A stretch of DNA of 64,000 nt. It comes from an uncultured Arenicella sp. (GTDB lineage Bacteria; Pseudomonadota; Gammaproteobacteria; Arenicellales; Arenicellaceae). The stretch is taken from contig CALJWL010000031.1 of the NCBI GenBank assembly GCA_937974565.1, positions 1 through 64,000 on the forward strand, in the 5' to 3' direction. Shown here piece by piece: positions 20,784-35,041 of the stretch; position 1 is the stretch's first letter; the number at the start of each line of letters is the position of its first letter. A program made the translations under genes and the position numbers. The notes under the pieces were generated by a model. The model was given only the letters and a program-made list of their open reading frames with translations, was not told the DNA's origin and made no database searches.

Positions 20784-21023
20784 GTTGTTTACTTATAGGG
20801 TTTTAGTAGTTATTACTAATCCTGTATATAACTAGCATAAACTAAAAATTCTCTTTATTTTCAATAACTTAAATGTAAATTTAACTGTTAATAACTATCC
20901 AGATAACCAAATAATAAGCTGTGGATTAAATGTGGATAAAAGTTATCAATTAATAATACAGCATTTATACAGAAGTTATCCACAGGCGCTTTTGGTGCCT
21001 TTCTGATTTCGTTGCCTAAGCCA
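20784..21023. other. oriC: Candidate replication origin (oriC) between dnaA and dnaN
   Basis: An AT-rich 240-base gap with two perfect DnaA boxes in opposite orientation: TGTGGATAA (20931-20939) and TTATCCACA (20976-20984). A one-mismatch box, TGTGGATTA, lies at 20920-20928. The stretch 20836-20915 is very A/T rich and could be the unwinding element. The Pseudomonas origin region also includes this type of gap. The dnaA-rpmH gap has no comparable boxes. Function is inferred. Confidence 0.7.
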
Positions 21024-22376
21024 TTAAACTGACAGTATTTTGGATAAGCTTTTGTAGTCTTCGTTAATTTTTGGTTCGGTTCTTGTTAATTCATCTATTT
21101 TCTTGCAAGCGTGGATAACCGTAGTGTGGTCTCGTCCACCAAAGGCATCGCCAATATCTGGTAGGCTGAGGCTAGTGAGTTCTTTGGCCAAGGCCATCGC
21201 AATTTGTCTTGGCCTGGCAATTTGCCTATTGCGGCGTTTTGATTTCAAATCAGAAACACGAATACTGTAAAAATCTGCCACGGTCTTTTGAATGTTTTCT
21301 ATTGATATCTTACGCTCTTGAAACAGTGTTAAATCTTGCAAGGTATCTTTTGCTAGATCGATATCGATTTCTCGATGAGTAAACCGTGAGCTGGCAACCA
21401 ACCTGTGCAACGCCCCTTCCAACTCTCGAACATTTGAACGGATTTTTTTTGCAACGAGAAAAGCCACCTCATCGCTCAGTTCAATTTCATTTTTACGGGC
21501 TTTGTTTTTTAAAATAGCTACTCGTGTTTCTAACTCGGGCGGATCTATTCTAACTGTTAGCCCGCTTTCGAAACGAGAAATTAGGCGCTCTTGAAGATTG
21601 TTTATTTCTTTAGGGAACTTGTCACTGGTAAGAATGATTTGAGCACCGGTTTCTAATAAGGTGTTAAAAGTGTGGAAAAACTCTTCTTGTGACTGATTTT
21701 TCCCAGCAAAAAATTGAATATCATCGATCAGCAAAGCGTCTAACGAGCGGTAATACGCTTTAAATTTGGCCATTGAGTTGTGTCCGATCGATTTGACCAT
21801 ATCTGAAACGAAACGTTCAGAATGCACATAGGCTACATTGGCGTTTTTCTTATTTGCTTTAATTAGATTGCCAGCAGCGTGCATAAGGTGGGTTTTTCCT
21901 AATCCCACACCACCATAAATAAACAGAGGGTTATAAGCCGAACCGGGGTTTTCACTGACTTGTTTTGTTGCGGCACGTGCAATTTGGTTTGACTTTCCTT
22001 CAATGTGGTTCTCAAAACTAAACGTGGCATTTAATACGTTAGTGCCAAATTCAGAAGACACATCGCCAGTGTTATCACTAAAATTTCCCTTTTCCACTGA
22101 AGAGGGTTGTTTTTTGCGCTCGGTGTTTCGCTTACTCTCGATCATTTTTACTGAGACGGCTATATTATTGCCAGCAAAATGTTGAGCGGCACTTTGCAAC
22201 ACTTCAAACAGGTTCTCGTTAATCCAATCGACCACAAATCGATTGGGGGCGTATAGAACCAAATCGCGATCATCATTGCTGGCCGTCAGTGGTCGCACCC
22301 ATGTATGGAAATCACGTTCTTCGATTTCGTCTTCGAGCTTTTTTAGGCACTTATCCCAAAGGAGAGTATTTTCCAT
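21024..22376 (-). CDS. dnaA: Chromosomal replication initiator DnaA
   Basis: An AAA+ ATPase that binds DnaA boxes and opens the origin. The 450-residue protein has domain I (residues 1-90, LLWDKCLKKLEDEIEERDFHTW type), a short linker, and the AAA+ domain with Walker A GGVGLGKTH (about 150) and Walker B LLIDDIQF. Domain IV has the box-binding signature ending GGRDHTTVIHACKKI at about residue 430. ATG 22376 gives the family N-terminus MENTLLWDKC; the longer frame to 22412 adds residues with no family match. It is divergent from rpmH. Confidence 0.99.
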   Translation of the reverse strand: MENTLLWDKCLKKLEDEIEERDFHTWVRPLTASNDDRDLVLYAPNRFVVDWINENLFEVLQSAAQHFAGNNIAVSVKMIESKRNTERKKQPSSVEKGNFSDNTGDVSSEFGTNVLNATFSFENHIEGKSNQIARAATKQVSENPGSAYNPLFIYGGVGLGKTHLMHAAGNLIKANKKNANVAYVHSERFVSDMVKSIGHNSMAKFKAYYRSLDALLIDDIQFFAGKNQSQEEFFHTFNTLLETGAQIILTSDKFPKEINNLQERLISRFESGLTVRIDPPELETRVAILKNKARKNEIELSDEVAFLVAKKIRSNVRELEGALHRLVASSRFTHREIDIDLAKDTLQDLTLFQERKISIENIQKTVADFYSIRVSDLKSKRRNRQIARPRQIAMALAKELTSLSLPDIGDAFGGRDHTTVIHACKKIDELTRTEPKINEDYKSLSKILSV

Positions 22377-25795: not shown

Positions 25796-27115
25796 ATGCA
25801 GGATACGATCGCGGCCATAGCCACTCCACCGGGTAAAGGTGGAGTGGGAGTGATAAGGGTATCCGGTAGTAAAGCCAAGGAAATTGGCGAAAGGATTTCA
25901 GCAAGACCTTTGATCGATCGTGTGGCCACCTTTGCGCATTTTAAAGATGCCAATCAAGAGACGATAGATTCAGGGCTTACGATATTTTTTGCCGGTCCAA
26001 AATCGTTTACCGGAGAGGACGTGGTTGAGTTTCAAGGTCATGGCGGCCCAGTAATCTTAGACCTAATGTTAAAACAGGTGATATCCCTAGGTGCGCGGCA
26101 AGCTCGGGCGGGCGAGTTCTCAGAAAGAGCTTTTTTAAACGATAAAATAGACCTTGCTCAAGCCGAGGCGATAGCCGACTTAATTGATAGCAGCACAGAA
26201 CAAGCCGCTAAAAGTGCAATGCGGTCTTTAAAAGGTGAGTTTTCAAAAAAAGTAAACGCCTTGTTGAAAGAGCTGATTTACTTGCGCATGTATGTCGAGG
26301 CAGCAATCGATTTTCCTGATGAAGAGATCGATTTTCTTGCTGACGAAAAAATACGATTGAGTATTGAGGGTTTACAGAAAAGTTTGGACAGGACCATCCA
26401 ACAAGCGGGTCAAGGTGCCATCTTGCGTAACGGTTTACGGCTGGTTATTGCTGGAAAACCGAATGCTGGAAAATCCAGTTTGTTGAATGCCTTGGCCGGT
26501 CAAGAAGCCGCTATTGTTACCAATATCGCTGGCACCACACGAGATATCGTGACCGAAACCATTGATGTTGACGGTTTACCAGTACACATTATTGATACGG
26601 CCGGTTTGAGAGACAGCTCAGATGCGGTGGAAAAAATAGGCATAGAGCGCGCACGAAAGGCCATTATTGATGCTGATCATGTGTTACTACTGATTGATGT
26701 CAGTGATCAGGGCAGCATTGAATTATCCGATTTTCCAGAACTGAACAATGCCAGCGTTACCACCGTTTTTAACAAAATAGACCTGTTAAGTACTGATAAC
26801 CAGTTCGAGGGTATTGCCTTATCGGCCAAAACCGGCGAAGGCATTGAATCGCTTAAGGCCGCCATTAAAAAAATGGCGGGCTACGCTCAAGAAAATGAAA
26901 CTGTTTTTACCGCGCGCCGGCGGCATTTGACCGCACTTTCACAGGCCAGTGACGCCGTGCAAAGAGGGTTGGATCAATTAAGAATTTATAACGCAGGTGA
27001 GTTGTTAGCCGATGAATTATTGCAAGCGCAAGATGCGTTGAATTCAATTACCGGTGAGTTTACGGCTGATGATTTGTTAGGTGAGATATTCAGTGGTTTT
27101 TGTATCGGTAAATAA
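25796..27115 (+). CDS. mnmE: tRNA modification GTPase MnmE
   Basis: MnmE with MnmG installs the carboxymethylaminomethyl group at U34 of tRNAs that read split codon boxes. The 439-residue protein has the folate-binding N-domain (MQDTIAAIATPPGKGGVGVIRVSG), a helical domain, and a G domain at about 215-370. The G domain shows GKPNAGKSSLLNALAG, a G2 TTRD, DTAGLRD and a NKID motif. The invariant C-terminal CIGK ends the chain. It is slightly shorter than the usual 450-455 residues but no motif is missing. mnmG lies 6 kb downstream, beyond the lipase block. Confidence 0.98.
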   Translation: MQDTIAAIATPPGKGGVGVIRVSGSKAKEIGERISARPLIDRVATFAHFKDANQETIDSGLTIFFAGPKSFTGEDVVEFQGHGGPVILDLMLKQVISLGARQARAGEFSERAFLNDKIDLAQAEAIADLIDSSTEQAAKSAMRSLKGEFSKKVNALLKELIYLRMYVEAAIDFPDEEIDFLADEKIRLSIEGLQKSLDRTIQQAGQGAILRNGLRLVIAGKPNAGKSSLLNALAGQEAAIVTNIAGTTRDIVTETIDVDGLPVHIIDTAGLRDSSDAVEKIGIERARKAIIDADHVLLLIDVSDQGSIELSDFPELNNASVTTVFNKIDLLSTDNQFEGIALSAKTGEGIESLKAAIKKMAGYAQENETVFTARRRHLTALSQASDAVQRGLDQLRIYNAGELLADELLQAQDALNSITGEFTADDLLGEIFSGFCIGK

Positions 27116-27190: not shown

Positions 27191-27919
27191 ATGCAAAGTA
27201 TGAGTGTGCTTAGGGAACTTAATTCCAAACAATTTACTCAAAGAAAAGCAGGGTTGGCTGCGTTTGTTGTTGCCTTGGCCTTGCATTCGTTGTTTTTGTT
27301 GCTTGACGTTTCGTTTGAACCCGCTTCTCAACCCAGTCAAAGTCGATTCTCAGTTAAAATCCACAAACAAGAAAGCAAACAAGCAGAGACGCCAGAGTTA
27401 AAAGAAGAGTCGAAAACGGATCAACCTAATACCAATACAACCAGCTCTCCAGAAAAGCCGCTTAGCCGCACTCAACCAACACACAATAAGAACTCCGTTG
27501 AGCTTTTGCTTGATTCGAAAGTATTAACGGACAAAAAAAAGAACTCAGACCCTGAGTTGAGTGTTCCGTCAATCAACGGTGACGATTTTCAGACGTTTTT
27601 ACAGCGAGAAACGGAGCGGGCTTTATCGCAAAATAAAGAAGGTGAAGACGAATTTTTATCCACATTTTCTCCTCCCGACACCCGCATATTAAAAGATACA
27701 AAAAGAGAAACAGGCCCATTGGGCGGTGGTAACTATAAAGTCGTAAGAAATGGAGTTGAATGTGAGATTTTGGTTCAGGTTCCTCAAACGCTCAGTGAAA
27801 TCACAGGGGAGGTGCCTTTGCTGTCTGGTGCCGGAAACTGTCGGGACCTGAACAATAAAATTGATTTGCTAGACAAACGTGGTCAGGTTAAAAACTCTGA
27901 CCGTCACGACTGGAATTAA
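27191..27919 (+). CDS. Single-span membrane protein of unknown function
   Basis: Not recognised. From the ATG at 27191 it has 242 residues: a basic N-terminus, one membrane helix (LAAFVVALALHSLFLLL, about residues 21-37), then a long Lys/Glu/Ser/Pro-rich linker (about 45-165). A small C-terminal domain (about 180-242) has two cysteines. The layout resembles TonB-type or other cell-envelope spanning proteins, but no TonB box-binding domain is evident. Start is uncertain: TTG 27152, ATG 27191 and ATG 27200 are all in frame and none has a strong ribosome-binding site. It follows mnmE closely and may be co-transcribed with it. Confidence 0.65.
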   Translation: MQSMSVLRELNSKQFTQRKAGLAAFVVALALHSLFLLLDVSFEPASQPSQSRFSVKIHKQESKQAETPELKEESKTDQPNTNTTSSPEKPLSRTQPTHNKNSVELLLDSKVLTDKKKNSDPELSVPSINGDDFQTFLQRETERALSQNKEGEDEFLSTFSPPDTRILKDTKRETGPLGGGNYKVVRNGVECEILVQVPQTLSEITGEVPLLSGAGNCRDLNNKIDLLDKRGQVKNSDRHDWN

Positions 27920-28225
27920 ACTTAACCCGCAAAGAAGATTAATAGACTTAACCTATAAGCCTTAATCCATTTTAATGATCTATTGCCTAATAAGTATGTA
28001 ATTTATATAAGATATAAAAATAATTCATTTTATTTTCAATATAGTGGACAAGTGGTCTGGTTTGTTTGTCCAACTTTTGATAAAAATCAGAGTTGTATCG
28101 TTAATGATGCAAGCTTGGGTTGTTTTTACACTCAAGCCCACTTCAAAAGAGTGTCTTATGATTTTAGTAGTTCAAAAGCCAGATCAACTCATTTTAGGGG
28201 AGTTGAGTTTAGTTGAGGTGCTTCG
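27920..28225. other. AT-rich intergenic stretch
   Basis: No supported gene. Two short plus-strand frames (27983-28216 and 28044-28229) lack ribosome-binding sites. The second ends in a GTGA overlap with the next gene but its composition is not protein-like. Confidence 0.4.
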
Positions 28226-29374
28226 GTGAAGCGTTCAGTCAAGGTGTGGTTGGGGGCTGTGGCTGTGGTGGGCATTGTCATCACTGCTTGGTTTGTTGTC
28301 GGTGAACCTGAAAAGGAAATAGCGGTGGCTAAGGTCGAGATAAAAACCCTAGAAAAACCAGTGCCTCAATTAAAAGCCGATCGTAAAAAGGTGTTGGAAG
28401 AAAAAGAAGAAGAGGATGAATTCAACCCCTACGAATCCGAAGCTTTTAAGGCAAACATTCAACAAGTTGCTGATATTTTTGAAGAGAACTCCAAATACCC
28501 GACTCATTCACAGCCAGTTTATGACCCTGAGGCTGTAAAAGAACCAGAACCGTATCAGTTTACGGAAGTTGATCTGCCCTTTCCCGAAAATGACGGTGAC
28601 GATAGCCCGATTCGAATAGCGGCGGCTACCGACAGATATCAGTATTTTGTAGGAGATATTATCCAAATGCGTGTGCGTTTAAGTGGCGCACCTCAAGACA
28701 CCTTTACAGAAGTCGAAGGAGTGCTATCTGGAGCAAACGGAGACATACCAATTGCACTCAACTTTAACGCTAAAGACAAATCCCTTACCGAGTTTAATGC
28801 TGAATTTGATACCAAACTTGCGCCACAAGGGTTGCTCACCCCTGAAATGCTAGCCAAGATCAGCGTCAAGGTGGGCGACAGAGATTTATTTACCACCGTT
28901 ACTTTTCGCGTAGACCAACCTTCCGCTCGTGTGGTCGGTGTTTTGCCAGCCAGGCCAGAAGGCCCGAACCTGATCATCCCGTTACAAGTGAACGTAGATC
29001 AAGGGGGGTATTATTTTTTGCGGTCGGTATTGGAAGATGCAACCACAAGGTTACCGTTGATAGAATTACAAGCCGAAGGTCGACTGCAGTTAGGTAATGG
29101 AATACTGACCCTAAAAGCCCACATTGCTGCGTTAAAACGTCAAGCGTCTGAAGGCCCATACGTATTGCGGAGCATTAAGCTCCATCGAGGCGCAGAAACC
29201 AATGAAGTGTATGACAGGCCAGGGTCTAGTTCACAACGAGAGTATGCCGTTCAAGGGTTTCCTTTCTCTGCTTACACCGACGAACAATACACAGATGAAC
29301 ACGCCCAAGAGCGTCTGGATTTTCTGCGTGACCTTGGTGAAGTAGATAACAACGAAGAAAATTTGGCCGAATAA
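28226..29374 (+). CDS. Membrane-anchored periplasmic protein, possible Ig-like fold
   Basis: Function not recognised. Starting at GTG 28226 (GAGG seven bases upstream), the 382-residue protein has one N-terminal membrane helix (about residues 8-25) and a highly acidic linker (about 28-110). The core (about 111-345) is rich in beta-strands, with patterns such as YFVGDIIQMRVRLSG and GGYYFLRSVL. The segment that follows (LGNGILTLKAHIAALKRQ, then GPYVLRSIKL) recalls the Ig-like C-terminal modules of DUF4785-type exported proteins, but this is only a resemblance. The tail is acidic. It sits in the lipase block and could act in envelope assembly or secretion; that is inference. Confidence 0.72.
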   Translation: MKRSVKVWLGAVAVVGIVITAWFVVGEPEKEIAVAKVEIKTLEKPVPQLKADRKKVLEEKEEEDEFNPYESEAFKANIQQVADIFEENSKYPTHSQPVYDPEAVKEPEPYQFTEVDLPFPENDGDDSPIRIAAATDRYQYFVGDIIQMRVRLSGAPQDTFTEVEGVLSGANGDIPIALNFNAKDKSLTEFNAEFDTKLAPQGLLTPEMLAKISVKVGDRDLFTTVTFRVDQPSARVVGVLPARPEGPNLIIPLQVNVDQGGYYFLRSVLEDATTRLPLIELQAEGRLQLGNGILTLKAHIAALKRQASEGPYVLRSIKLHRGAETNEVYDRPGSSSQREYAVQGFPFSAYTDEQYTDEHAQERLDFLRDLGEVDNNEENLAE

Positions 29375-29536
29375 CTATAAAAAAATAATAAGAACCAAGT
29401 TTTTTACAATCCATATTCGGAAAACAAAAAACATAATTGGTCATCAATGCTTAAGCGATGTTTGCTAAGCCATAACTATAAAAATGCAATAAAACTCAAT
29501 TCTTATAAACGATTGATAAACACCAAAGGTAACACT

Positions 29537-30580
29537 ATGAAGATTAAATCACTGCTTATTATTGCAGTCATACTACTCGGTTGCGGGTCTGCTCATGCTA
29601 AATTAGCAGGTAAAAATGTTATTTTGGTTCACGGCTTTATATCCGAACACCTTAATACTCGCCCAAGCTTAGAACAACAAATACAGCAAGCCCCAGATTA
29701 CTGGCAAGATTTTTGGGCATCACGAGCCGAAGGGTATATTGTGTTTCCTTCACATGAACGCGTGCAAGGCGTAATCAAAGATCAAGTACGGACTCAATTT
29801 CAGTCTCTACAAAACTCAGGTACGTGTGCCAATGGCTGTGTTTTTGTCACGCACTCTACTGGTGACTTGGTTTTGCGCGATGCGCTAACTCGCTTTGGCC
29901 AATGGGGAATCAACAAAAATGCAGTGAAAGTGTTAGCCGTAATAGATTTGGCTGGCGCGGGCGGTGGCACCGGTTTGGCAGACTTTGCAATAAGCACCGC
30001 ATCCAATGGGGGCATCTTTAACGCCGTGGTTGGCGCGATTGCCGGCGGCGTATTGGACGTCAACTTTACACCAAGCCGCCTTGGTGTTCTAAATGATTTA
30101 CGCGTTGCTCAAGCTCGCAGTATTGCACAGCAAAACAATGATACCCCACGTTTACGAGTGGCTGGTGCGGGCGATCAGTTTGCAAGAATTACTAAAGGGT
30201 TTATTCGTGGTTTTGACGACAGTGTGGTCGGCATGCACAGTGCTTGTGGGGCTCGTAATGCCAGTGACGCTGAATCGTGTAGCAGCAGTGTTCGTTCGAA
30301 TGGTCAATTGGCCAGTGCGCGTGGCCCTGGATCTTTATTACATAATCACTTCCCAATCATTATGGGAGACGGAGCTGATCATGAAGAGTTGCGTAATAAC
30401 TCTCGCCCAGGTGGCTCTTTAACAACGGTGGTTAATGATCGCACTTTTGGTGGTATCCGAGTTGATTTCGAAACCAATACAAGTCGGCGCTTCTGGAGTT
30501 GGTTTACTCGTGTTAGAGAAGTGAATGGCAGTGACAGTAAAAGTGTTTCAGCAACGGTTTACGACACACTAAATAACTAG
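29537..30580 (+). CDS. Exported lipase/esterase-like hydrolase
   Basis: A 347-residue alpha/beta-hydrolase with a signal peptide (residues 1-22). The signal region reads LLGCGSAHA, so it could be either a lipoprotein (Cys of LLGC) or a normally cleaved protein (after AHA). The oxyanion region is VILVHGFISEH and the nucleophile elbow is VTHSTGDLV, a variant of GHSxG with Thr in the first position. A glycine-rich stretch (AGAGGGTGLAD) follows. The acid and His are not certain; DGADHEE near residue 280 is a candidate region. I start at ATG 29537 because it puts the signal peptide at the N-terminus; 29447 does not. It is upstream of the lipase genes, so two hydrolases share the block. Confidence 0.78.
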   Translation: MKIKSLLIIAVILLGCGSAHAKLAGKNVILVHGFISEHLNTRPSLEQQIQQAPDYWQDFWASRAEGYIVFPSHERVQGVIKDQVRTQFQSLQNSGTCANGCVFVTHSTGDLVLRDALTRFGQWGINKNAVKVLAVIDLAGAGGGTGLADFAISTASNGGIFNAVVGAIAGGVLDVNFTPSRLGVLNDLRVAQARSIAQQNNDTPRLRVAGAGDQFARITKGFIRGFDDSVVGMHSACGARNASDAESCSSSVRSNGQLASARGPGSLLHNHFPIIMGDGADHEELRNNSRPGGSLTTVVNDRTFGGIRVDFETNTSRRFWSWFTRVREVNGSDSKSVSATVYDTLNN

Positions 30581-30700
30581 CGTACTGTTAATGTTCTCGA
30601 TAAGATAATTGGGATTAGGGCTGGCGTTAATCGCTGGCTCTTTTCTTTTCTGTGAGTTTATTCTAACCCTTATTTAGGGTGTGGCTGAAAGACCATCTGC

Positions 30701-31045
30701 ATGGCGAAAGTAAAAGAGTATTTTTTTAAAGAAGGCTGTTTTATAGAGGAATGGCATAATTCCCGAGCCGATGCTGACATGTCGGTGGCTCGAGTTCGAG
30801 TGGAGATAGGTAAAACCACCAAGCTGCACACATTAAATGGCACGCACGAACGCTATGTGATGTTAGAAGGCCAAGCGGTTGTTACTGTTGGCTCGAATAG
30901 TTGGCCTATCAGCAAAGGCGATGTGGTGGTCATACCGCCGAATGTTCCACAAAAGATAGAAAACTGCGGTGCTAAAGACGTGATCTTTTTAGCGATTTGC
31001 ACGCCCCGATTTAAAGAACAAAATTATCGAGAACTCCAACCTTAA
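30701..31045 (+). CDS. Small cupin-domain protein
   Basis: A 114-residue single-domain cupin, probably cytosolic. Cupin motif 1 appears around KLHTLNGTHERYVMLEGQ, with His ligands and the conserved Glu replaced or shifted, and motif 2 around GDVVVIPPNVPQKIEN. The chain could bind a metal and a small ligand or sugar. It ends 15 bases before lipA and shares a short spacer with it, so the two are probably co-transcribed. Substrate unknown. Confidence 0.8.
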   Translation: MAKVKEYFFKEGCFIEEWHNSRADADMSVARVRVEIGKTTKLHTLNGTHERYVMLEGQAVVTVGSNSWPISKGDVVVIPPNVPQKIENCGAKDVIFLAICTPRFKEQNYRELQP

Positions 31046-31060
31046 ATTGGAGGTCTTATC

Positions 31061-31984
31061 ATGAGCAAATTGACCCAAGTCGTTTGTCTAACTCTGGTGT
31101 GCTTTGTGGCTGCTTTTACTAGCGTATCGGCGCAGGCACAGTACACAAAAACAAAATACCCGATAGTGTTGGTCCATGGCGTGTCTGGCTTTGATAGCGT
31201 AGGCGGTGTGATTAACTATTTTTATACGGTTCCCTATAATTTGAGACGGTCGGGTGCTAAGGTCTATGTTGCATCGGTGTCTGCTTTTAACTCGTCGCAA
31301 GAGCGTGGTCAACAGTTGGCAAACTATTTAATGACCTTGCCTGAAAGCAAGTTTAACCTCATAGGCCATAGCCAAGGTTCTCCAACATCTCGCGTGGCGG
31401 CGTCTTTGGTGCCTCAAAAAGTGGCTTCAGTTACCTCGGTGAACGGCGCCAACTTGGGCTCTAAGGTGGCCGATGTGGTGCTTGGGGTTTTGCCTGAAGG
31501 TCTGGGCCGTAGTGTGCTTGTCAGCGTAGCAAACGCGGCGGGTGCGGTTATCAACTTTCTATCGAGTAATCAAAACAGTCAAGACGCGCTTGCTGCAGCT
31601 GAAACGCTCAGCAGTGCCGGCTCGGCAGCGCTCAATAACGCCTTGGGAAATAAAGGCTTAAGTCGCTCATGCAGATCGATCAATGAAAACGTCAATATTG
31701 ATGGCCAAAACATCAAAATGTTTTCATGGAGTGGAACCTCACCCGTTACCAATATCTTTGATATTTCCGATGGGCCACTTGGCTTAACGGCCTTAGCTTT
31801 TGGGTTTGAGCGCAACGACGGTTTAGTCAGTGAATGCTCTTCCAAACTCGGCAATGTTATTTACAGTCGATATAACATGAATCATATTGACGCGGTAAAT
31901 CATCTTTTTGGTGTGCGAGGTTGGACTAACCCCGTCACTTTATACCGAGCCCATGCTAACCGTTTAAAAGGCAAAGGGCTGTAA
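31061..31984 (+). CDS. lipA: Secreted triacylglycerol lipase (family I.1/I.2)
   Basis: An extracellular lipase of the Pseudomonas/Burkholderia type that hydrolyses triglycerides. The 307-residue protein has a signal peptide ending AQA (about residue 27). It shows the oxyanion segment YPIVLVHGVSGFD, nucleophile elbow GHSQG (about residue 104), the acidic residue in RNDGLVSECS and the catalytic His in MNHIDAVNH. Two cysteines, in SRSCRS and SECSSK, occupy the positions of the family disulfide. The C-terminus ends HANRLKG as in P. aeruginosa LipA. Such lipases need a Lif foldase, encoded directly downstream, and are usually exported by type II secretion. Symbol follows the family. Confidence 0.95.
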   Translation: MSKLTQVVCLTLVCFVAAFTSVSAQAQYTKTKYPIVLVHGVSGFDSVGGVINYFYTVPYNLRRSGAKVYVASVSAFNSSQERGQQLANYLMTLPESKFNLIGHSQGSPTSRVAASLVPQKVASVTSVNGANLGSKVADVVLGVLPEGLGRSVLVSVANAAGAVINFLSSNQNSQDALAAAETLSSAGSAALNNALGNKGLSRSCRSINENVNIDGQNIKMFSWSGTSPVTNIFDISDGPLGLTALAFGFERNDGLVSECSSKLGNVIYSRYNMNHIDAVNHLFGVRGWTNPVTLYRAHANRLKGKGL

Positions 31985-33060
31985 TGATGAATTTGACCAA
32001 CCCAACGCCCATTAAGTTGTTGCTGCTTGGGTTGGTTATTATTTTAATCTACTTTGGGTTCAATGCATGGAGCCAAAAACCTAAAAACCAACCAACACCG
32101 TTGCCCAGTTTCGGGCAAAAGGTCAGTGTATCTGGGGTAGACAGTCTTGCATCCACGCATAATAAGAACCGTGAATTAAGCGTTCTCGCCAGCACCCCAA
32201 AAAATCACGATCAGGCTGTTTTATCGCAAACTCATAAAGACACTCAAATAGATGGGGCCTTAATAGTGGGTGAAGACGGTCAATTGATGCTCAACCAAGG
32301 CGTTAGAGATTTCTTTGACTACTTTCTTAGCGCAGCCGATGAGATTGGGCCTGAAGCAGCAATAGCGCACATTCAGCGCTATATTGAAAACTACCTTCCC
32401 TCCCCGGCTTCAGATCAAGCAAACAGCTTGCTTTGGAGTTACCTGCATTACAAAAAATACGAACTTAGTTTGCAGCAACAACCATTAACAGCCGATTTAA
32501 TCAGTCAATTGGATGCTTTGGTCGTGTTGAGAGAAAACTTTGATACGCTTGCCGTAAAAAGAGCCGAGTTATTTAGTGTAGAAGCAGATCAAGCTTTGTT
32601 TGGGCTAGAGAAGCTATACCAAGAACACACATTAAGTACGCTTGAGCTTTTTGCAGATCAATCGATCAGTCAGCAAGAGCGCCAAACAAAGTTGGAACGA
32701 TTACAAGAGAGCTTGCCGCCAGAGTTGCAAGCCAGTCATGATCAAGATCAACAGCAGCGTCAACAACAACAAACAATAGAAAAAATTACGGCTTCAAACG
32801 CCGATGATTCAAGTTTTCATCAAGCTTTGCTGGACCAAGGGTTGGAACAACAAAAGGCCGATGAGCTATTGTCTTACCGACAACAGCAAGTTCAATTTGA
32901 ATCACTGTATTGGCACTACCGAACCGCTGTTTCTAAATTGAATAAGCAAGACAAAAACTACCCACAAAAACAGGCCTCCTTAAGAAAAACGTTTTTTTCT
33001 CTGCCAGAACAGCAAACCTTAGCAAAGCTAAGAGATCTGCGTGAAGATCAAACAAAATAG
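31984..33060 (+). CDS. lifO: Lipase-specific foldase (Lif)
   Basis: An inner-membrane-anchored steric chaperone that folds the lipase in the periplasm. The 358-residue protein has one N-terminal membrane helix (about residues 10-26), a Pro/Ser-rich linker, and the helical catalytic region. The signature RxxFDYFLSA is present as RDFFDYFLSAADEIG at about residue 108. A long Gln/Glu-rich helical section follows (about 210-350). The first ATG overlaps the lipA stop (TAATG), a second ATG is three bases on. Coupling fits the one-to-one requirement between lipase and foldase. Confidence 0.94.
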   Translation: MMNLTNPTPIKLLLLGLVIILIYFGFNAWSQKPKNQPTPLPSFGQKVSVSGVDSLASTHNKNRELSVLASTPKNHDQAVLSQTHKDTQIDGALIVGEDGQLMLNQGVRDFFDYFLSAADEIGPEAAIAHIQRYIENYLPSPASDQANSLLWSYLHYKKYELSLQQQPLTADLISQLDALVVLRENFDTLAVKRAELFSVEADQALFGLEKLYQEHTLSTLELFADQSISQQERQTKLERLQESLPPELQASHDQDQQQRQQQQTIEKITASNADDSSFHQALLDQGLEQQKADELLSYRQQQVQFESLYWHYRTAVSKLNKQDKNYPQKQASLRKTFFSLPEQQTLAKLRDLREDQTK

Positions 33061-33160: not shown

Positions 33161-35041
33161 ATGTTTCATACTGAATCTTTTGATGTCATTGTGATTGGCG
33201 GTGGCCACGCAGGCACCGAGGCAGCCTTGGCCTCGGCGCGCACCGGTGCAAACACACTTTTGCTAACACATAATATTGAAACCATTGGTCAAATGTCGTG
33301 CAACCCTGCGATTGGCGGTATAGGTAAAGGCCATATTGTGCGTGAAATAGACGCGCTGGGCGGCGCGATGGCTGAGGCTGCCGATCGCGGCGGCATCCAG
33401 TTTCGTACATTAAATGCGCGCAAAGGCCCAGCCGTGCGCGCCACCCGTGCGCAGGCTGATCGTGCGTTGTACAAAGCCGCCATTCGCGAAATTGTAGAGA
33501 ATCAAGATAATTTATCGTTATTTCAACAATCTTGTGATGACTTAATCATCGAAAAGGGTCGAGTGACGGGGGTTGTCACACAGATGGGACTAACGTTTCG
33601 CACCAAGACAGTGGTGCTAACGACAGGCACCTTTTTGGGTGGTGTTTTACACATTGGCATGGAAAACTTTCAAGGTGGTCGAGCGGGTGATCCGCCATCG
33701 AACGTCTTAGCCAAACGTTTGCGTGACATGCCATTTACCGTTGATCGGCTGAAAACAGGCACGCCAGCCCGTTTGGATGCGCGCTCTTTGGATTTTTCAA
33801 AGATGCAAGCGCAGCCAGGCGACACACCTGAACCGGTGTTTTCTTTTCTGGGAGATGTATCTCATCACCCCAGACAAGTTAATTGCTATATCACACACAC
33901 CAATATTCAAACGCACGATATTATTCGCGATGGTCTAGATCGTTCACCGCTCTACAGTGGTGTCATAGAGGGGGTGGGCCCGAGGTATTGCCCTTCCATT
34001 GAGGATAAAATTGTTCGTTTTGCAGACAAAGGCTCGCATCAAATTTTTGTTGAACCTGAAGGGCTAACAACGCATGAAGTTTACCCTAATGGCATATCAA
34101 CTTCGTTGCCCTACGATGTGCAATTGAACTTCATTCGTTCAATTGTGGGGTTTGAGAATGCACGTATTGTGCGCCCAGGTTATGCCATTGAGTATGACTT
34201 TTTTGACCCTCGTGGTTTGAAGCCCACACTGGAAACCAAGCATATAGATGGCTTGTTTTTTGCTGGCCAGATTAATGGCACCACAGGCTATGAAGAAGCT
34301 GGCGGTCAAGGTTTGTTGGCTGGTCTTAATGCGGCACGTCAAACCCGTGACCAAGAAGGTTGGTATCCCACGCGCGACCAAGCGTACATAGGTGTGCTGG
34401 TGGATGACTTGATAACCATGGGCACTAAAGAACCCTATCGTATGTTCACATCACGTGCGGAATATCGTTTGTTATTGAGAGAAGACAACGCCGATTTACG
34501 CCTTACTGAAATGGGGCGTGAATTAGGCTTGGTGAGCGATGAGCGTTGGGCTGCATTCAGTAAAAAAAGAGAATCCATAGAGCTTGAACAGCAACGCTTA
34601 AAAAGCACGTGGCTACAGTCTGGCACGGTTCCTGATGATGTGGCTGAAAAAGTGGTTGGCAATGTATTAAAAAAGGAAGCAAACCTTCTTGAACTACTGC
34701 GCAGACCCGAGGTGACCTATCATACACTCATGACGCTGCCTGGGGCGGGTAAAGCCGTTGAAGACCCAAGCGTGGCTGAACAACTGGAAATTCAAGCTAA
34801 ATACCAAGGCTATATAGATCGCCAGCAAAATGAAATAGAAAAGCAGAAACGGCACGAGCAAACCAAGTTAAACATCAAGATGGATTATACCTTGGTAACT
34901 GGTTTGTCTAATGAAGTGGCGCAAAAATTAAATGACCACAAACCAAGCAGTATTGGTCAAGCTTCTAGGATTTCCGGTGTAACTCCAGCCGCAATATCGC
35001 TGTTACTGGTCTACCTTAAAAAGCAAGGGCGGGCAGCCTAA
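33161..35041 (+). CDS. mnmG: tRNA uridine 5-carboxymethylaminomethyl modification enzyme MnmG
   Basis: The FAD-dependent partner of MnmE in wobble-uridine modification. The 626-residue protein (usual about 630) has the FAD-binding N-terminus ([15 protein letters not shown]), the cysteine-containing [14 protein letters not shown] motif, the [10 protein letters not shown] segment and the [18 protein letters not shown] motif at about residue 365. The C-terminal helical domain is complete. It starts 100 bases after the foldase gene. rsmG follows, the usual gidAB pair. Confidence 0.98.

What the first reader, a model, noticed from the sequence alone, without database searches (positions are those of the whole stretch)
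27191..33060. Lipase block inserted between mnmE and mnmG
In many gammaproteobacteria mnmE and mnmG are close neighbours near the origin. Here six genes intervene: two unknown envelope proteins, an exported hydrolase, a cupin, lipA and its foldase. Placement near the origin gives high gene dosage in fast growth. The set may be a lipid-degradation module with unrecognised accessory proteins.
Basis: partly seen in the sequence, partly recalled or inferred. Interest (0 to 1): 0.55.

Follow-up and report, generated by a model that had tools for sequence, protein, structure and literature searches.

The report
Two lipases, each with own helper
Between two housekeeping genes near the replication origin, an Arenicella bacterium carries an ordinary lipase with its known folding helper and, separately, a second secreted lipase-like enzyme with a membrane-anchored neighbour from a protein family of unknown function (DUF4785), which seems to travel with such enzymes in several groups of bacteria and may be a new kind of enzyme-folding helper.

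Summary
In detail: six genes lie between mnmE and mnmG, 6-12 kb from the origin, in an Arenicella genome. They are not one lipid module but three units. (1) cupin-lipA-lifO is a standard lipase/foldase operon. (2) gB (28226) and gC (29537) form a separate pair: gC is a family-I-lipase-like hydrolase with a Sec-type signal; [quoted passage not shown] (3) gA (27191) is fast-evolving and of unknown role. gB and gC occur in the same 14 of 109 genomes of the order; all 18 gB genes there touch a gC gene, several without lipA/lifO. Homologous pairs stay adjacent, in other gene orders, in a genome of another family, Vibrio and Photobacterium. Authentic DUF4785 proteins (relatives of Legionella NttD, function unknown) sit beside a secreted hydrolase in 4 of 4 loci examined. 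I infer that gB is the dedicated periplasmic partner of gC, most likely a Lif-like chaperone with a different fold. The partnership is well supported; the chaperone mechanism is inference. Elsewhere in the genome a PETase-family enzyme is paired with two half-size Lif relatives, in the same 6 of 18 genomes.

The parts
20920..21118 (.). cluster of five DnaA-box-like 9-mers (origin region)
   Evidence: sites with at most 1 mismatch at 20920, 20931, 20976, 21039, 21110 (20 such sites in the whole window); skew minimum sampled at 22 kb
25796..27115 (+). mnmE (left boundary)
   Evidence: PF12631 E 6.8e-59
27191..27919 (+). gA: fast-evolving protein with one N-terminal hydrophobic segment (TonB-like pattern, recalled), low-complexity linker, small C-terminal region
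   Evidence: 15-30% identity to 10 homologues from congeners, several recognised by position; no Pfam family at a useful E-value
28045..28072 (+). terminator-like hairpin between gA and gB (may be chance)
   Evidence: 11 pairs; number in the region not above shuffles
28226..29374 (+). gB: predicted TM anchor (3-24), disordered linker, helix, two beta-sandwich domains of DUF4785 fold; predicted dedicated partner of gC
29537..30580 (+). gC: Sec-type signal (read by eye), family-I-lipase-like alpha/beta hydrolase; candidate triad S107, D228, H282
30617..30641 (+). terminator-like hairpin (10 pairs, T-rich tail) between gC and cupin (may be chance)
30701..31045 (+). cupin, present even where the lipases are absent
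31061..31984 (+). lipA, secreted lipase (GHSQG)
31984..33060 (+). lifO, lipase-specific foldase with RDFFDYFLSA motif
33161..35041 (+). mnmG (right boundary), named from its translation and synteny

Best explanation
The block is a site near the origin that has collected two separate 'secreted lipase plus membrane-anchored helper' pairs. Pair one is classical: LipA with the helical foldase LifO, encoded with a cupin. Pair two is gC with gB. gC is exported by Sec as an unfolded family-I-like hydrolase; gB, tethered to the inner membrane by its N-terminal helix and a flexible linker, holds its two DUF4785-type beta-sandwich domains in the periplasm, binds emerging gC, helps it reach the active, secretable fold and releases it. 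gB would thus do for gC what Lif does for LipA, with a different fold, and DUF4785 proteins in general would be dedicated partners of a secreted alpha/beta hydrolase. Shown by computation: gene anatomy, conserved adjacency, co-occurrence, co-divergence, predicted fold. Inferred: topology, binding, the folding role, secretion.
For: Co-occurrence: gC in 14 of 109 and gB in 14 of 109 genomes of the order, the same 14. Adjacency: 18 of 18 gB loci touch a gC; 18 of 21 gC loci touch a gB; in the named-genome scan 12 of 12 gB copies on 11 loci, most of them the same contigs. Persistence through rearrangement: gB-gC order in most Arenicella loci, gC-gB in G010:C59, Photobacterium and Vibrio (gB HMM E 5e-32 and 1e-25), divergent in G246. 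Co-divergence: distances over 20 pairs correlate, r 0.80, 0 of 20000 permutations reach it (relatedness not removed). Architecture: an N-terminal hydrophobic segment in 22 of 22 gB homologues (hydropathy 1.39 in one, 1.65 or more in 21) and in 22 of 22 gC homologues (no signal-peptide program was run). Fold: gB model (pLDDT 79.9) matches DUF4785 structure 4KH9, Z 13.5, rmsd 4.8, 220 residues; profile match to authentic DUF4785 prob 95.4, E 1.7e-8, 0 of 100 column shuffles reach it. DUF4785 proteins lie beside a secreted hydrolase in 4 of 4 loci (3 of 3, read; P. xiamenensis, found through the hydrolase); ORFs overlap by 4 bases in two. gC is related to LipA: prob 94.6, E 7e-8; structure matches are mostly bacterial lipases, best Z about 12. 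Precedent: Lif and CpaB, anchored helpers encoded beside their enzymes (PMC4713064).
Against: No binding, folding or secretion data. Three gC genes have no adjacent gB (G000:C33 500 bp from a contig start, G017:C264, one copy of the G011 duplication), though each genome has a gB elsewhere. gB itself was sought only in the order and, by close similarity, in named genomes and plasmids; unpaired gB genes elsewhere in the class were not looked for with the gB profile. The Pfam DUF4785_3rd model gave no match at E 0.001 in the three Arenicella genomes, and a sequence-profile search of solved structures did not list 4KH9 among the 60 of 63 rows shown. The 0-of-100 shuffle control is passed also by the weak gB-lifO similarity (prob 41.5), so it is a lenient control. 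NttD, the studied DUF4785 protein, is found in culture supernatant and its mutant had normal lipase activity (PMC5904407 section 11), which fits a co-secreted partner as well as or better than a retained chaperone. gC resemblance to the Legionella-type hydrolase is short (51 columns, prob 81). The gC model is of middling confidence (pLDDT 72.0). Some Proteus-type family-I lipases, among the best structure matches, fold without Lif (recalled). A type II secretion system was not sought in this genome.
Confidence: 0.52

Rival explanations
1. gB is an inhibitor or immunity-like protein: gC is a phospholipase that would damage the cell's own envelope, and gB holds it inactive in the periplasm until export.
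For: The same adjacency, anchoring and co-occurrence would be expected; the three gC genes without a neighbouring gB occur in genomes that have a gB elsewhere. Beta-sandwich domains often serve as binding modules (general knowledge).
Against: The nearest relatives of gC by structure are extracellular lipases, some with known anchored chaperones; NttD-type DUF4785 proteins are themselves secreted; gC begins with a Sec-type signal.
Confidence: 0.2
2. gB/DUF4785 is a stable subunit or docking factor of the hydrolase (substrate binding, surface retention or co-secretion), not a folding factor.
For: NttD is secreted in Legionella (PMC5904407 section 11); the fold resembles binding modules; hydrolase and DUF4785 ORFs overlap by 4 bases in two genomes, suggesting matched synthesis.
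Against: The Arenicella and Vibrio versions have a hydrophobic N-terminal segment that looks like an uncleaved anchor (by eye), so they should not leave the cell with the enzyme unless cleaved.
Confidence: 0.18
3. One reading: all six genes form one lipid-degradation module.
For: All 10 of 18 Arenicella genomes with lipA also have gB and gC, in 8 of them in the same interval.
Against: gB-gC without lipA in G001, G008, G010, G013 and no lipA/lifO in 22 of 22 scanned stretches; cupin alone in G003, G008, G016; a terminator-like hairpin between the units, weak.
Confidence: 0.07
4. gB and gC are neighbours only by shared ancestry of a quiet site, with no working relation.
For: In 11 Arenicella genomes a gB-gC pair sits in one syntenic place.
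Against: The pair moves and flips together: other contigs, another family, reversed and divergent orders, and DUF4785 with a hydrolase in further groups.
Confidence: 0.03

Closest known systems
Lipase-specific foldase Lif/LipB/LipH with LipA (PF03280)
   Same: Window lifO is a member. gB shares the layout: N-terminal hydrophobic anchor, variable linker, folded domain, gene beside a secreted lipase-like hydrolase; in both pairs the helper diverges faster than the enzyme (identity to the window protein: lifO 38-45%, lipA 68-76%; gB 42-54%, gC 49-74%)
   Different: gB has no PF03280 match; predicted fold is beta-sandwich, Lif is helical with MD1-EHD-MD2 (PMC13381987 passages)
CpaB, membrane-anchored chaperone of the secreted protease CpaA, and the proposed class of 'T2SS chaperones' (Harding 2016, PMC4713064: passages, section 15)
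   Same: Adjacent gene, single N-terminal hydrophobic segment, one secreted enzyme
   Different: CpaB's client is a protease; requirement of gB for secretion not shown. None of the 13 rows of their Table 1 names DUF4785, but 6 rows are unnamed hypothetical proteins that I did not compare with gB
DUF4785 family, Legionella NttD / lpg0956 (PDB 4KH9)
   Same: Predicted fold and profile of the central and C-terminal domains; authentic members sit beside a secreted alpha/beta hydrolase (4 of 4 loci)
   Different: NttD is secreted and has an N-terminal dimerisation domain (PMC5904407 section 11); gB looks anchored and shows no detectable first domain. Function of NttD unknown

Membership tests
Lif (PF03280), for window lifO | Lipase_chap profile above curated cut-off | tested here: met
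   68.3 bits against 25.7
Lif (PF03280), for window lifO | Motif RXXFDY(F/C)L(S/T)A in MD1 | tested here: met
   RDFFDYFLSA in the translation, motif as given in PMC13381987; R108 to L115 invariant in 9 sequences
Lif (PF03280), for window lifO | Needed for folding of the adjacent lipase | not testable with these tools
   needs expression
Lif (PF03280), for gB | Lipase_chap profile match | tested here: not met
   no PF03280 match up to E 1. Profile-profile with lifO is weak (prob 41.5, 53 columns) though above 100 column shuffles
DUF4785, for gB | DUF4785_3rd profile | tested here: met
   25.0 bits against 24.5, marginal (no match at E 0.001 in a whole-genome search); profile-profile prob 95.4 over 182 columns
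DUF4785, for gB | DUF4785_1st and _2nd profiles | tested here: not met
   neither listed up to E 1, while an authentic member hits all three
DUF4785, for gB | Overall fold of 4KH9 | tested here: met
   Z 13.5, rmsd 4.8, 220 aligned; partial (residues 93-343 of a predicted model)
T2SS-chaperone class (Harding 2016), for gB | Gene adjacent to the secreted enzyme, and co-regulated | tested here: inconclusive
   adjacent in 18 of 18 gB loci of the order; co-regulation, and whether gC is a T2SS substrate, not tested
T2SS-chaperone class (Harding 2016), for gB | N-terminal TM with periplasmic C-terminal part | tested here: inconclusive
   hydrophobic segment present in 22 of 22; topology not tested
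T2SS-chaperone class (Harding 2016), for gB | Required for secretion of its enzyme | not testable with these tools
   needs mutants
Bacterial family-I lipase, for gC | Fold and profile similarity | tested here: met
   best Z 12.2; prob 94.6 to LipA over 140 columns
Bacterial family-I lipase, for gC | GxSxG nucleophile elbow | tested here: not met
   THSTG (TASTG or THSAG in some homologues) instead; Ser invariant in 20 of 20

The most novel reading that the evidence does not exclude
DUF4785 is a family of hydrolase-dedicated folding factors, an Ig-like, non-Lif answer to the problem of folding secreted lipases, with membrane-anchored (Arenicella, Vibrio) and secreted (NttD-type) branches; and the same genus has also split the Lif fold into two half-size anchored proteins serving a PETase-family enzyme. 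Secreted esterases would then routinely depend on one-client helpers of several unrelated folds that annotation has missed.
Probability: 0.35. Interest if true: 0.8.

Novelty: new variant of a known kind. Interest (0 to 1): 0.56.

Why it matters
It gives a testable function to a family with a solved structure and no known role (DUF4785), including a studied secreted protein, NttD. It would extend dedicated periplasmic helpers for secreted enzymes from the Lif and CpaB folds to a further one, and could explain why some lipases and polyester hydrolases from such bacteria fail when expressed alone. The PETase cassette bears on enzyme discovery for plastics.

Tried and rejected
Rejected: the six genes as one module (see rivals). 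gB as a Lif homologue: no PF03280 match and a weak profile score, though that weak score too exceeded 100 column shuffles, so a remote tie is not excluded. gA as a TonB protein: no TonB family among the matches of its 11 homologues up to E 1; the resemblance is from memory. Sequence search of solved structures: the gB profile gave arrestins and one other chain at E 0.13 or worse, 60 of 63 rows shown, 4KH9 not among them; the gC profile nothing up to E 10; the half-foldase profile nothing up to E 1. CpaB was not among the rows shown, which shows nothing. tRNA and Rfam (gathering threshold) scans of the window found nothing. Plasmid searches with gB and with an authentic DUF4785 protein found nothing; gC found the Vibrio and Photobacterium pairs; the first half-foldase found nothing. 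Weak hits not followed: gC in G244 (E 2.6e-4), half-foldase in G106 (E 9.5e-5). Tree of 20 genomes from MnmE and MnmG (some with only one of the two): supports along the backbone run from 20 to 64, so a single gain with later losses of lipA/lifO is only the simplest reading. The survey outside Arenicella is small: DUF4785 in 3 of 340 genomes, gC in 6 of 369, four of them Arenicella. Papers: I found no statement that DUF4785 proteins pair with hydrolases in the library searched (2, 5 and 95 papers held the terms, of which I read passages or one section of three), nor of a foldase for a PETase (one paper held both words, seen as a listing; none).
Full report
What is there. The window is from an Arenicella genome (Gammaproteobacteria, Arenicellales): of 11 loci found in named genomes with gB, 8 are titled Arenicella, and several of these are the same contigs as the unnamed congeners. 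The window is a stretch of a 3.37 Mb assembly in 72 contigs. Gene order at the site is dnaA (minus strand), rnpA, yidD, yidC, mnmE, gA, gB, gC, cupin, lipA, lifO, mnmG, rsmG, parA, parB, atp genes (housekeeping names are my reading of the translations, only mnmE was tested against its family). Five DnaA-box-like sites lie at 20.92-21.11 kb, and the GC-skew minimum, sampled every 2 kb, is at 22 kb.

The classical part. LipA (31061-31984) has the elbow GHSQG; LifO (31984-33060) overlaps it by one base, passes the Lipase_chap cut-off (68.3 against 25.7 bits) and carries RDFFDYFLSA, the consensus motif quoted in PMC13381987 (passages). The cupin ends 15 bases before lipA. lipA is in 10 of 18 Arenicella genomes, and 11 of 11 copies lie on a contig stretch with mnmE or mnmG beside them. 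This part is ordinary.

The unusual part. gB and gC are a second pair. In the whole order (109 genomes) a gC profile finds 14 genomes and a gB profile finds 14, the same 14. By locus, 18 of 18 gB genes are next to a gC; of 21 gC genes, 18 are next to a gB and 3 are not (G000:C33, 500 bp from a contig start; G017:C264; one copy in the tandem duplication in G011). A scan of named genomes gave 11 loci with 12 gB genes, 12 of 12 beside gC; 10 of the 11 are contigs already counted, L091 is new. In a class sample gC was found in 6 of 369 genomes, four of them Arenicella; one other, G246 of another family, has gC and a distant gB homologue (E 7e-36) in divergent orientation, and the weak hit in G244 was not followed. 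A plasmid collection that includes very large replicons gave 4 records with gC, in Photobacterium and Vibrio, 36-39% identical; the three loci read (L185-L187, two of them nearly identical) each have gB directly downstream, and the fourth record shows the same neighbour by a separate search.

The pair is independent of lipA/lifO. gB-gC is present and lipA absent in G001, G008, G010 and G013. No lipA or lifO was found in 22 of 22 scanned stretches, with L085 as a positive control (two of the 22 are orphan gC loci, L087/L128 and L093/L125 are the same contigs, L186/L187 are near-identical strains, and the stretches are 3.6 to 19 kb). Conversely 10 of 10 lipA genomes have gB-gC, in 8 of them in this interval. 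A terminator-like hairpin follows gC, but such hairpins are about as many as in shuffled sequence, so this is weak.

What gC is. It starts with a Sec-type signal (read by eye; an N-terminal hydrophobic stretch in 22 of 22 homologues) and has a family-I-lipase-like fold: best structure matches include Lipk107, Proteus lipase, B. glumae lipase and Acinetobacter LipA (Z 11.9-12.2, rmsd 3.7-4.4, 216-234 residues), from a model of pLDDT 72.0. Profile comparison with LipA gives prob 94.6, E 7e-8 over 140 columns, above all of 100 column shuffles. Ser107, Asp228 and His282 are invariant in 20 of 20 pairs, so it is probably an active enzyme; the elbow is THSTG rather than GxSxG. Substrate is unknown.

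What gB is. A 382-residue protein with a predicted TM helix (3-24), a disordered linker (25-63), a helix and two beta-sandwich domains (pLDDT 79.9). Its best structural match is 4KH9, a DUF4785 protein of Legionella, standing clear of the next row (Z 13.5 against 10.3). Pfam reports only the third DUF4785 domain, marginally, and the same model found nothing at E 0.001 in the three Arenicella genomes; but a profile of 20 gB proteins aligns with authentic DUF4785 proteins over 182 columns of the central and C-terminal domains (prob 95.4, E 1.7e-8; 0 of 100 shuffles). Other pairings reached at most prob 41-50 (gB with lifO 41.5, half-foldase with gB 50.2); the gB-lifO value also exceeded 100 shuffles, so that control is lenient. 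I take 95 as meaningful and 81 (gC with the Legionella-type hydrolase, 51 columns) as only suggestive.

The wider pattern. DUF4785_3rd was found in 3 of 340 class genomes. In all three the gene is preceded on the same strand by a secreted-type alpha/beta hydrolase, overlapping by 4 bases in two (G140, G280) and about 11 bases away in G371; the second and third hydrolases are 61% and 49% identical to the first. In Pseudoalteromonas xiamenensis the same hydrolase is annotated next to a 'DUF4785 domain-containing protein', 9 bases apart; this fourth locus was found through the hydrolase, so it tests the pairing in the other direction. That is 4 of 4. In the literature NttD is a T2SS-secreted protein of unknown function, second gene of a four-gene operon; the section I read does not discuss the first gene, and the nttD mutant had normal lipase activity (PMC5904407 section 11).

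Mechanism. The combination of a one-client gene pair, an N-terminal anchor, a long flexible linker and an exported lipase-like client is the layout of the anchored helpers Lif and CpaB (PMC4713064 passages and section 15). I therefore favour a folding or secretion chaperone (0.52). Inhibitor and co-secreted subunit remain open. The matched divergence of gB and gC (r 0.80 over 20 pairs; on 9 orthologous loci r 0.60, partial r 0.58 after removing MnmG distance) fits contact but not which kind; the permutation test does not remove relatedness.

A parallel in the same genome. Searching for foldases uncovered a second, stranger helper set. On contig C12 a PETase-family enzyme (PF12740, E 6e-104) is followed by two proteins of 266 and 235 residues with hydrophobic N-termini and an apolipoprotein N-acyltransferase-like protein (the last was family-tested in L068 only). 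Both short proteins are related to Lif by profile (prob 97.1 and 85.7 against the LifO alignment, 0 of 100 shuffles). By Pfam the evidence is weaker: in L069 both pass the Lipase_chap cut-off, in L068 the first is below it and the second has no match. They match only the first part of the model, MD1 and part of the extended helical domain, and lack MD2. A strong PF12740 hit (E 1e-102 or better) occurs in 6 of 18 Arenicella genomes (all 18 have weaker hits, at best 3e-12, to other hydrolases), and the first half-foldase in the same 6 (E 8e-100 or better; a seventh genome has only a weak hit at its LifO), adjacent in 6 of 6. In the class sample nothing strong was found outside Arenicella. This fits the view that Arenicella gives several of its secreted esterases an anchored helper of their own. 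Arenicella sp. is reported as a growing part of biofilms on polyethylene (PMC8637277 passages), which is context only.

History of the site. On a tree from MnmE and MnmG the early branches of the genus have an empty interval, the cupin alone, or (G001) gB-gC with the cupin; the full set belongs to a later clade with lipA/lifO missing in G013 and G010 (backbone support 20-64). G005 (82% complete) gave no mnmE, lipA, lifO, gB or gC, so it says little.

Verdict. The lipase and foldase are ordinary. The new element is gB-gC: a new variant of a known kind, with a function proposal for DUF4785 that is cheap to test.

Noticed in passing
G000:C12 about 85.7-90.3 kb (locus L068); also L069, L070, L071, L072, L183: PETase-family polyester hydrolase followed by two anchored half-size Lif relatives (first ~100 of 192 Lipase_chap positions, no MD2) and an Lnt-like protein (family-tested in L068 only); strong PETase hit and first half-foldase in the same 6 of 18 Arenicella genomes. 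Possibly a split foldase for a PETase.
   Followed up: partly
G000:C33:503-1540 (L102) and G017:C264:3347-4378 (L123): A gC subfamily (48-50% identical to the window's gC, elbow THSAG) without an adjacent gB, in genomes that have a gB elsewhere; the first lies 500 bp from a contig start.
   Followed up: partly
L057 / L083 (G011): Duplication in the interval: gA, gC, cupin, lipA, gB, gC, lipA, lifO.
   Followed up: no
window 30701-31045: The cupin persists between mnmE and mnmG even where no lipase is present; in 15 homologues only one His and one Glu of the usual first metal motif are kept (motif recalled), so it may not be an enzyme.
   Followed up: partly
window 27191-27919: gA: fast-evolving protein with a TonB-like N-terminus (recalled) and one invariant Cys in the C-terminal part; homologues, several recognised by position and alignment only, lie in the interval in all 10 lipA genomes and in G010.
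   Followed up: partly
L049 3596-5648 (G001): ABC1-type kinase gene and an unknown ORF between gC and the cupin; genomes of other families of the order carry yet other ORFs after mnmE, so the gap looks like a general insertion site.
   Followed up: no
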